Assembly (NCBI RefSeq): GCF_021631985.1 | Contig: NZ_CP070225.1 | Span: 8,184,001-8,248,000, forward strand | Origin: Sandaracinus amylolyticus | Lineage (GTDB): Bacteria; Myxococcota_A; Polyangia; Polyangiales; Sandaracinaceae | Reading direction: 5' to 3' | DNA: 64,000 nucleotides | Shown here: positions 13,647-46,701 of the stretch, in pieces | How positions within the stretch are numbered: the first letter of the stretch is position 1 | How the letters are laid out: each line of letters opens with the position of its first letter | Notes under the pieces: model-generated | What the model was told of the DNA's origin: nothing | The model's database searches: none | Seen by the model: only the letters and a program-made list of their open reading frames with translations | Program-made: the position numbers and the translations under genes

Positions 13647-14255
13647 GGGAACGGCCCTCCTGTTCGGAAGACGAACGCGAAGAGAGAGATCGCGACGCGC
13701 GATCTCGGAGAGTGCGCCGCCCGCGGGCGCGCCTCGCGCGCGCAGCGGGAGCTGCCACCAGCCACCCGCGCGTCACGAGGACGCGCGGGCGCGGGCACGA
13801 CGTGGAGATCACGCGGCAGCTCGCAGGGCCACGCGTGCCGCGCCGTGATCGACGAGCGATCACGACTCGACGCGCCGGCGGAACGGCTATGGGGTTGTTG
13901 CCTTTGGACGGCTTCCGTTTGCGAGACGGATGTCTGTTGCTGATTTTCAGTCAGCCCTGCTCACCAGAGCGCACCCCCGTAGGGTGGGGGCGGCGGGAGT
14001 CGAACCCGCGAGGAGTGGAGCGACCTCGACGACCCTCGAGAAGCGGAACACGCACCACCGATTCGTGTGGGCCCGTGCGCGCCGCAAGGTTCGTCGACGT
14101 TGCGACGCGGCCCTGAGCAGCGCGCGTGCCGTCGCGTGATCGCGTGAAACCGCCACGAATCGCGCGCTTCCCGTCTATCCCCGTGGATAAGCGGCTATCC
14201 GCCCGCGATGTATGCTGTCACGGACCGCGGAGGACACGTTTGCTAGGCTGCCGCG
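13647..14255. other. 609-bp intergenic region with structured-RNA-like core
   Basis: This gap between divergent genes holds the upstream region of the SPFH gene, the hairpin cluster at 13914-14009 described separately, and the upstream region of the CHAD-CYTH gene. A DnaA-box-like TTATCCACG lies on the minus strand at about 14184-14192, isolated. Apparent open frames over the hairpin cluster do not look like proteins. Confidence 0.5.
13914..14009 (-). ncRNA. Putative structured RNA of tRNA-arm-like hairpins
   Basis: Five hairpins fill 96 bases. In minus-strand order: GCGGG-TTCGACT-CCCGC (14009-13993), identical in form to a tRNA T-arm; CGCCCCC-ACCCTAC-GGGGGTG (13992-13972), seven pairs; GCTC-TGGT-GAGC (13970-13959); GCTGA-CTGAAAA-TCAGC (13955-13939), the form of an anticodon arm with GAA; and TCCGT-CTCGCAA-ACGGA (13930-13914). 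Three have the 5-7-5 geometry of tRNA arms. No ordinary cloverleaf can be closed because the 7-bp acceptor-like strands are adjacent, as in a permuted tRNA. It lacks G3-U70 and a recognisable tag, so tmRNA is not supported. Strand and function are uncertain. Confidence 0.35.
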
Positions 14256-45699: not shown

Positions 45700-46701
45700 A
45701 TGCGCGCCCGTGCTGCCCTCGGCGTCGCGCTCGTGATCGTCGCGCTCGCGCTCGCTCCGCTCGGTGCACGCGCCGACCTCGAGCCGATCGCGTACACCGT
45801 CCTCCGCGGCGACACCGCGATGCGCATCGCGTCGCGCCACGGGCTCACGCTCGCGCAGCTCGGCGCGCTCAACGAGGGACAGAACCTCGACCGACTGCGC
45901 GCCGGACAGTCGCTCGTCGTCGGGCACGGGCACGCGATCCGTCATCGGGTGCGAGCGCGCGAGACCGTCGCGATGATCTGCGAGCGCTACGGGATCTCGC
46001 GCGTCGAGCTCGCACGGTGGAACGAGGGTCTCGACGAGGACCACCTGCCCGTCGATCGCGAGCTCCGCCTCTGGGCGCGCCGCGACGATCCCCCGAGCCA
46101 GTCGGTGGGGCGCCCCGATCGCGGCGAGCTCGTCCACGGCGTCACGATCCCCTCGCATCCCGCGTACGTCGTGCGCGATCCCGAGCGCGCCTGGGTCGCC
46201 CGCCACGTGGCCGAGCACCTCGCGCGCGGCTTCGACGCGGTGCTCGCCATCGATGCGAACGCCCCGCGCGTGCAGATCCGCGACGCCAGCCTTCCCTCGG
46301 GCGGGCGGCTGCGTCGTCACCGCAGCCATCAGAGCGGCCGCGACGTCGACCTCGCGTACTACCAGCGTCGCTGTCCCAGCGGGCTCTGCAGCCGGCGCTG
46401 GATGCGCCCCGACGCGCTCGACGCGCGCCTGCAGTGGGCGCTGATCGAGCCGTGGCTGCGCGCCGACGTCGTCGAGTACGTGTTCGTCGATCACGAGCTC
46501 CAGGAGCCGCTGTGGCAGGCCGCGCGCGACGCCGGCGCGACCCGCGAGGAGCTCTCGCGATGGTTCCAGTGGCCACGCGCCGCCCACGTCCGCACCGGCG
46601 TGATCCGACACGTGCCGCGACACGCCGAGCACCTGCACGTGCGGTTCGCGTGCGCGTCGAGCGACGAGACCTGCGTGCCGAGCGTGCGCGACAGCGACTG
46701 A
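45700..46701 (+). CDS. LysM-MepA type murein endopeptidase
   Basis: The 333-residue exported protein has a signal peptide (to about ARAD), two LysM domains for peptidoglycan binding (YTVLRGDTAMRIASRHGLTL and HRVRARETVAMICERYGIS), then a MepA-like LAS metallopeptidase domain with HRSHQSGRDVDLAYY (zinc His and Asp) and HAEHLHVRFAC (zinc His). It likely cleaves cross-links in peptidoglycan in the periplasm. The start is ATG 45700. The gene is convergent with a lipoprotein gene, and repeat copy 5 fills the gap. Confidence 0.9.
   Translation: MRARAALGVALVIVALALAPLGARADLEPIAYTVLRGDTAMRIASRHGLTLAQLGALNEGQNLDRLRAGQSLVVGHGHAIRHRVRARETVAMICERYGISRVELARWNEGLDEDHLPVDRELRLWARRDDPPSQSVGRPDRGELVHGVTIPSHPAYVVRDPERAWVARHVAEHLARGFDAVLAIDANAPRVQIRDASLPSGGRLRRHRSHQSGRDVDLAYYQRRCPSGLCSRRWMRPDALDARLQWALIEPWLRADVVEYVFVDHELQEPLWQAARDAGATREELSRWFQWPRAAHVRTGVIRHVPRHAEHLHVRFACASSDETCVPSVRDSD

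What the first reader, a model, noticed from the sequence alone, without database searches (positions are those of the whole stretch)
13914..14009. Five back-to-back tRNA-arm-like hairpins in permuted order
Within 96 bases there are three 5-7-5 hairpins, one 7-7-7 hairpin and one 4-4-4 hairpin, almost without gaps. The first (minus strand) is a textbook T-arm with TTCGACT; the 7-bp strands CGCCCCC and GGGGGTG would make an acceptor stem if the T-arm/acceptor half were moved after the anticodon-like arm (loop CTGAAAA, GAA). That is the layout of a circularly permuted tRNA or tRNA-like RNA, which is not known as a normal tRNA form in bacteria. It could also be a new structured RNA or a decayed tRNA site.
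Basis: partly seen in the sequence, partly recalled or inferred. Interest (0 to 1): 0.65.

Follow-up and report, generated by a model that had tools for sequence, protein, structure and literature searches.

The report
Slipin-linked permuted tRNA-mimic RNA
Just upstream of a membrane-scaffold (slipin) gene in a myxobacterium lies a small RNA that copies the arms of a tRNA in rotated order; relatives of this gene in many bacteria carry similar RNAs, often beside RNA-repair genes, so it is probably a tRNA mimic used when the cell's tRNAs are being cut, not a working tRNA.

Summary
The five hairpins are real and read on the minus strand: T-arm, closed acceptor stem, short D-arm, then two anticodon-like arms. 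Folding energy is not exceptional (z about -1.2), but comparison is decisive. The RNA lies between a sigma-54-type promoter and a Band_7/slipin gene. In Myxococcota, 22 of 27 slipin genes have a tRNA T-arm within 1 kb upstream (shuffles: mean 0.5, maximum 3). A covariance model built only from other genera finds this site as the window's best hit (41.9 bits, E 2.8e-8). T, acceptor and anticodon stems covary strongly. Elsewhere the RNA or a tRNA stands between slipin and RtcA, RtcB or RtcR genes. The genome has its own RtcR, RtcB copies, and Rsr/TROVE with a YrlA-like RNA of the same permuted layout, under a similar promoter. So this is a tRNA-mimic RNA of the RNA-repair (Rtc) network, slipin-linked rather than Rsr-linked. 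It is not a usable permuted tRNA, a permuted tmRNA or a decayed tRNA. From memory, Burroughs & Aravind (2016) already proposed that Band-7 repair modules have a cognate tRNA-like RNA; I could not open that paper. Mechanism (decoy or scaffold) is inferred.

The parts
14115..14131 (-). sigma-54-type promoter CGGCACGCGCGCTGCTC (-24 GG, -12 GC); start of transcription inferred near 14105
   Evidence: Matches GGCACG-N4-YTGCTNA; 25 such sites in 11 Mb against 2 for the reversed pattern. Also present upstream of the RNA in L040, L102, L104, L106.
14043..14065 (-). conserved 5' motif CGAATCGGTGGTGCGTGTTCCGC, role unknown
   Evidence: Similar sequence between promoter and T-arm in L040, L102, L104, L106, L108
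13993..14009 (-). T-arm-like hairpin GCGGG TTCGACT CCCGC
   Evidence: Sequence; covarying helix 1 in relatives; R1 match
13972..13992 (-). closed acceptor-like hairpin CGCCCCC-A-CCCTAC-GGGGGTG (3' strand, discriminator-like A, loop, 5' strand)
   Evidence: Sequence; own-versus-cross pairing 0/2000 permutations as good; 5 of 7 pairs change on both sides; shorter compensated hairpin in L040
13959..13970 (-). D-arm-like hairpin GCTC TGGT GAGC with shortened loop
   Evidence: Sequence; D-arm position of R1 and of Rfam YrlA
13939..13955 (-). anticodon-arm-like hairpin 1, GCTGA CTGAAAA TCAGC
   Evidence: Sequence; helix 4 covaries in relatives
13914..13930 (-). anticodon-arm-like hairpin 2, TCCGT CTCGCAA ACGGA
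   Evidence: Same place in 9 relatives with a 7-nt loop and changed stems
13844..13864 (-). terminal hairpin CGTGATCGCTCGTCGATCACG, no T-run after it
   Evidence: Stem kept and loop changed in L040
12558..13646 (-). slipin, SPFH/Band_7 protein, 362 aa, downstream of the RNA on the same strand
   Evidence: Pfam Band_7 102.7 bits; ORF

Best explanation
The region encodes a small noncoding RNA (from about 14105 to at least 13914, minus strand) transcribed from a sigma-54-type promoter as a separate RNA or as the leader of a slipin (SPFH/Band_7) gene. It imitates a tRNA in circularly permuted order: T-arm, acceptor stem closed by a loop, D-arm, then one or two anticodon-like arms. It belongs to a family of slipin-linked tRNA-mimic RNAs in the Rtc RNA-repair network and is built like YrlA-type Y RNAs, but linked to slipin instead of Rsr/Ro60. 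Shown here: anatomy, conservation, covariation, promoter match, and linkage to slipin and Rtc genes. Inferred: it is made when tRNAs are being cut, it cannot be aminoacylated because the acceptor is closed, and its elbow and anticodon-like arms bind tRNA-acting proteins, either as a decoy for anticodon nucleases or as a guide that brings tRNA-repair or tRNA-handling enzymes to a slipin assembly. Identity about 0.9; decoy or scaffold mechanism about 0.4.
For: R1, built without Sandaracinus, gives the window site 41.9 bits, E 2.8e-8; next best in the window 14.3 bits. Covariation: 97.4% of cells paired, 12 of 20 pairs changed on both sides, score 0.561 against at most 0.112 for slid controls. 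Acceptor strands pair with their own partner better than with others' (0/2000 permutations). T-arm upstream of slipin in 22/27 Myxococcota, 0 antisense, 1 downstream, shuffles mean 0.48. Rtc gene next to the RNA/tRNA-slipin unit in 9 of 26 loci examined: RtcB (L103, L107), RtcR (L110), RtcA (L111, L112, L113, L114, L120, L135). Slipin co-occurs with RtcR (17/27 versus 43/165, p 2.6e-4) and TROVE (p 0.002). R1 matches 21 of 28 TROVE loci, 0 of 30 RtcR loci, 0 of 6 RtcB loci. Literature: SPFH gene inside the P. aeruginosa rtc locus (PMC13086221); slipin, rtcB and a tRNA operon under TrcR in Anabaena (PMC10272220); RtcR binds 5' tRNA halves (PMC7790460).
Against: No expression data. R1 also matches junctions of ordinary tandem tRNAs (L019, 41.8 bits), so its score alone does not separate permuted RNA from a tRNA pair. 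The two Sandaracinus sequences are close to each other, have a 4-nt D-loop and lack the outer stem found in other families. No Rtc gene lies next to this copy; RtcR is 110 kb away. Many relatives lack an obvious sigma-54 site. No protein binding has been shown. The co-occurrence tests ignore shared ancestry.
Confidence: 0.62

Rival explanations
1. It is a stray YrlA Y RNA that works in trans with Rsr/Ro60, encoded 2.1 Mb away, and its neighbourhood to slipin is secondary.
For: Same permuted order as Rfam YrlA (weak hit 14.6 bits; 23.1 bits in G001). The genome has Rsr/TROVE with a YrlA-like RNA behind it; in G001 the TROVE promoter is almost identical to this one.
Against: Slipin linkage is far stronger than chance. 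G003, G156, G173, G189 and G203 have slipin but no TROVE hit, and their loci (L184, L168, L165, L166, L167) carry the RNA. No Ro-binding outer stem recognised here.
Confidence: 0.2
2. It is a cis-acting leader: the tRNA-like fold senses tRNA damage or a tRNA-binding protein and controls slipin expression.
For: Always upstream of and on the same strand as slipin, about 270 nt from the start codon here; stable terminal hairpin before the gene.
Against: No terminator or ribosome-site sequestering switch seen; distance to slipin varies from about 340 to 1100 nt; in other phyla the same place holds whole tRNA genes, and in TROVE loci similar RNAs lie in arrays away from slipin.
Confidence: 0.15
3. 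A true circularly permuted tRNA gene: the precursor is circularised (perhaps by RtcB) and opened at the acceptor to give a working tRNA-Phe.
For: Acceptor strands pair 7 bp with an A at the discriminator place; order fits permuted tRNA genes; first anticodon-like loop carries GAA.
Against: No CCA, 4-nt D-loop, two anticodon arms, no bulge-helix-bulge motif noticed; in relatives the loop at the anticodon place changes freely and is often 8-9 nt; the genome has an ordinary tRNA-Phe(GAA).
Confidence: 0.03
4. A decayed tandem tRNA pair or an integration scar made from tRNA ends.
For: R1 also matches ordinary tandem tRNA junctions; Phycisphaerae slipin loci carry tandem tRNA-like genes in the same place.
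Against: Stems are kept by compensatory change across families and between the two Sandaracinus species.
Confidence: 0.03
5. A permuted (two-piece) tmRNA.
For: Rfam tmRNA_permuted and beta_tmRNA match the T-arm plus acceptor hairpin at 24 bits, below threshold.
Against: The genome has a one-piece tmRNA at C1:3780743 (141 bits); the match ends at the acceptor and D position.
Confidence: 0.01

Closest known systems
Band-7/SPFH-associated tRNA-like RNA of RNA-repair systems (Burroughs & Aravind 2016, NAR 44:8525; content recalled from memory, paper not held)
   Same: tRNA-like noncoding RNA linked to an SPFH/Band-7 gene in Rtc-type repair systems
   Different: Could not check whether permuted topology, covariation, anticodon-arm pairs or Myxococcota copies were described there
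YrlA, bacterial Y RNA (Rfam RF02553)
   Same: Order T-arm, closed acceptor hairpin, D-arm; sits in an RNA-repair network; Rfam model aligns in register
   Different: Score far below gathering; no Rsr gene next to it; short D-loop; extra anticodon-like arms; no recognised Ro-binding stem
Circularly permuted tRNA genes of red algae and archaea
   Same: 3' half precedes 5' half with complementary acceptor strands
   Different: No sign of splicing or CCA; extra arms; tRNA-Phe already present
Permuted tmRNA (RF04321, RF01849-RF01851)
   Same: T-arm followed by closed acceptor stem
   Different: No tmRNA 5' domain or tag; one-piece tmRNA elsewhere in the genome
rsr-yrlBA-rtcBA operon of Salmonella
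   Same: sigma-54 promoter, RtcR, tRNA-like RNA
   Different: Slipin instead of Rsr; genes dispersed in this genome

Membership tests
YrlA (Y RNA) | Rfam RF02553 score at or above gathering (69 bits) | tested here: not met
   14.6 bits, E 4.6; G001 homolog 23.1 bits
YrlA (Y RNA) | tRNA-like module in the order T-arm, closed acceptor hairpin, D-arm | tested here: met
   Alignment; R1 matches both slipin-linked and Rsr-linked RNAs
YrlA (Y RNA) | Encoded next to Rsr/Ro60 (TROVE) | tested here: not met
   TROVE is at C1:6091299, the window element at C1:8.198 Mb
YrlA (Y RNA) | Binds Rsr through the outer stem | not testable with these tools
   Needs binding assay; no outer stem recognised here
Slipin-linked tRNA-mimic RNA of Rtc systems | Upstream of slipin on the same strand | tested here: met
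Slipin-linked tRNA-mimic RNA of Rtc systems | Covarying T, acceptor and anticodon stems shared with relatives | tested here: met
Slipin-linked tRNA-mimic RNA of Rtc systems | Genome carries an Rtc repair system | tested here: met
   RtcR and four RtcB loci, though not adjacent
Slipin-linked tRNA-mimic RNA of Rtc systems | RNA binds slipin or repair proteins | not testable with these tools
   No binding data
Circularly permuted tRNA gene | Rotated halves that rebuild a cloverleaf with 7-bp acceptor | tested here: met
Circularly permuted tRNA gene | Single anticodon arm with conserved anticodon and standard D-loop | tested here: not met
   4-nt D-loop, two anticodon-like arms, loops vary between relatives
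Circularly permuted tRNA gene | Circular intermediate and mature aminoacylated tRNA | not testable with these tools
   Needs RNA sequencing
tmRNA (permuted) | Matches full tmRNA model; sole tmRNA of the genome | tested here: not met
   Partial 24-bit match; complete tmRNA elsewhere

The most novel reading that the evidence does not exclude
The RNA is a built-in fuse for tRNA damage: anticodon nucleases cut its exposed anticodon-like arms, and the resulting 5'-half-like piece ending in cyclic phosphate helps switch on RtcR and the repair network, while slipin anchors the response at the membrane.
Probability: 0.08. Interest if true: 0.8.

Novelty: new variant of a known kind. Interest (0 to 1): 0.52.

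Why it matters
RNA repair by RtcA and RtcB is widespread in bacteria but its partners are poorly understood. This RNA ties slipin to tRNA mimicry and to the same kind of tRNA-like module used by Y RNAs, suggesting that Rsr and slipin are alternative platforms for one type of tRNA-mimic RNA. It gives named loci, stems and a promoter to test, and it is not in Rfam as a family.

Tried and rejected
ARAGORN and Rfam on the window: nothing at threshold. Permuted tmRNA: rejected, one-piece tmRNA present. Folding energy as evidence: uninformative. Most BLAST-like hits to the T-arm plus CCGCC in relatives are 3' ends of ordinary tmRNA and say nothing about this RNA. The sigma-54 pattern is not specific to repair genes: most of the 25 genome sites precede unrelated genes. 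RtcB copies and RtcR of this genome show no such promoter in the stretches looked at. The permutation test for anticodon-like arm 2 is weak because many relatives share the same stem letters. No plasmid match. PADLOC: slipin matches no defence family. Key papers on Y RNAs and on Band-7 repair modules are not held.

Full report
What is there. Read on the minus strand, 14009-13914 holds a T-arm, a closed 7-bp acceptor-like stem with an A at the discriminator place, a small D-arm and two anticodon-like arms with 7-nt loops that begin CT. ARAGORN and Rfam at gathering score find nothing. With permissive thresholds the T-arm plus acceptor hairpin matches permuted tmRNA models at 24 bits, and Rfam YrlA aligns T-arm, acceptor hairpin and D-arm in register at 14.6 bits. 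Folding energy is unremarkable.

Surroundings. The RNA is followed on the same strand by a 362-aa SPFH/Band_7 protein, a slipin. About 106 nt before the T-arm is a sigma-54-type promoter, CGGCACGCGCGCTGCTC. The strict pattern occurs 25 times in the 11-Mb genome against 2 for the reversed pattern. The divergent neighbour is a CHAD-domain gene.

Same genus. The other Sandaracinus-like genome (G001) keeps promoter, 5' motif, T-arm, D-arm and both anticodon-like arms. Its acceptor hairpin is shorter but compensated (CGCCCC-CTCC-GGGGCG), and the loop of arm 2 changes while its stem is kept. That the organism is Sandaracinus is from memory (genome size); no tool named it.

Relatives. Slipin homologs were collected from public genomes and from 192 genomes of the class. 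In 22 of 27 class genomes a 5-7-5 T-arm with TTCRA lies within 1 kb upstream, against a shuffle mean of 0.48 and maximum of 3; none are antisense and one is downstream. The region after it shows acceptor hairpin, D-arm with GG and anticodon-like arm. The 7 nt after the T-arm pair with their own downstream partner better than with those of other loci (0 of 2000 permutations). In 14 aligned sequences without Sandaracinus, 97.4% of cells pair and 12 of 20 pairs change on both sides; slid controls fall to 35-49% paired. A covariance model from them, R1, finds the window site first at 41.9 bits, E 2.8e-8. In one family the sequences flanking this core also pair (own 4.5, permuted mean 3.7, 1 of 5000), which would place the ends of the permuted RNA in the variable arm. 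I do not see that stem in Sandaracinus.

Link to RNA repair. In slipin loci of other phyla the gene before the RNA or tRNA is RtcB (L103, L107), RtcR followed by a sigma-54-like site (L110) or RtcA (L111, L112, L113, L114, L120, L135). Many of these slipins are preceded by tRNA genes, some lacking a full acceptor stem, or lie in large tRNA arrays. Slipin co-occurs with RtcR and TROVE in the class (not corrected for ancestry). The window's genome has RtcR, RtcB copies and TROVE with a YrlA-like RNA directly behind it. The G001 TROVE promoter reads GGCACGCGCGCTGCT, as here; the G000 TROVE has the weaker GGCATGCGCCCTGCT. R1 matches 21 of 28 TROVE loci, but none of 30 RtcR and 6 RtcB loci and only 1 of 20 other sigma-54 sites, marginally. 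So one kind of permuted tRNA mimic marks both Rsr and slipin loci.

Published context. An SPFH gene lies in the P. aeruginosa rtc locus (PMC13086221). Anabaena TrcR represses rtcB, a 26-gene tRNA operon and a slipin gene (PMC10272220). RtcR is switched on by 5' tRNA halves with cyclic phosphate ends, and YrlA was suggested as a possible inhibitor of an anticodon nuclease (PMC7790460). I recall that Burroughs & Aravind 2016 proposed SPFH/Band-7 modules with a novel tRNA-like RNA as repair scaffolds; the citation exists but the text is not held.

How it probably works. Shown: structure by covariation, promoter match, linkage. Inferred: the closed acceptor prevents charging; the conserved T-arm and D-arm make a tRNA elbow that tRNA-acting proteins recognise; the anticodon-like arms change sequence freely between relatives while keeping shape, which suits a decoy for nucleases or a docking surface more than decoding. 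Slipin would supply an oligomeric membrane platform, as Rsr supplies a ring.

Limits. R1 also scores ordinary tandem tRNA junctions at up to 41.8 bits (L019). The distinction rests on the covarying closed acceptor, the absence of any complete tRNA here and conservation. There is no expression or binding evidence.

Verdict. The permuted-tRNA reading is partly right in shape, but the likely function is tRNA mimicry in RNA repair. It is a variant of a kind already known or proposed.

Noticed in passing
window 14043-14065 (-), L040, L102, L104, L106, L108: Conserved motif roughly GAATCGGTGGTGCGTGTNCCGC between promoter and T-arm, conserved across families; role unknown.
   Followed up: partly
G000 C1:6092986-6093094 (L069 3180-3290): A second YrlA-like RNA directly behind the TROVE/Rsr gene; the sequence before its T-arm resembles a tRNA-Glu anticodon arm.
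   Followed up: partly
L111, L112, L113, L115, L117, L118, L120 upstream of slipin: tRNA-like genes whose acceptor stem is cut to 3-5 bp, some in tandem so that neighbours can also pair in permuted fashion.
   Followed up: partly
L232, L074, L090, L083: Long arrays of permuted tRNA-like or YrlA-like RNAs, with many R1 matches in one locus.
   Followed up: no
window 13844-13864 (-): Conserved strong hairpin with a changed loop in G001 and no T-run; possible processing or stability element.
   Followed up: no
window 13930-14139 (+) and 13712-14116 (+): ORFs antisense to the RNA (with GVEPARS-like residues typical of translation across a tRNA antisense strand) are probably spurious.
   Followed up: no
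window 45804-45889 (-): Weak R1 match, 14.3 bits, probably chance.
   Followed up: no
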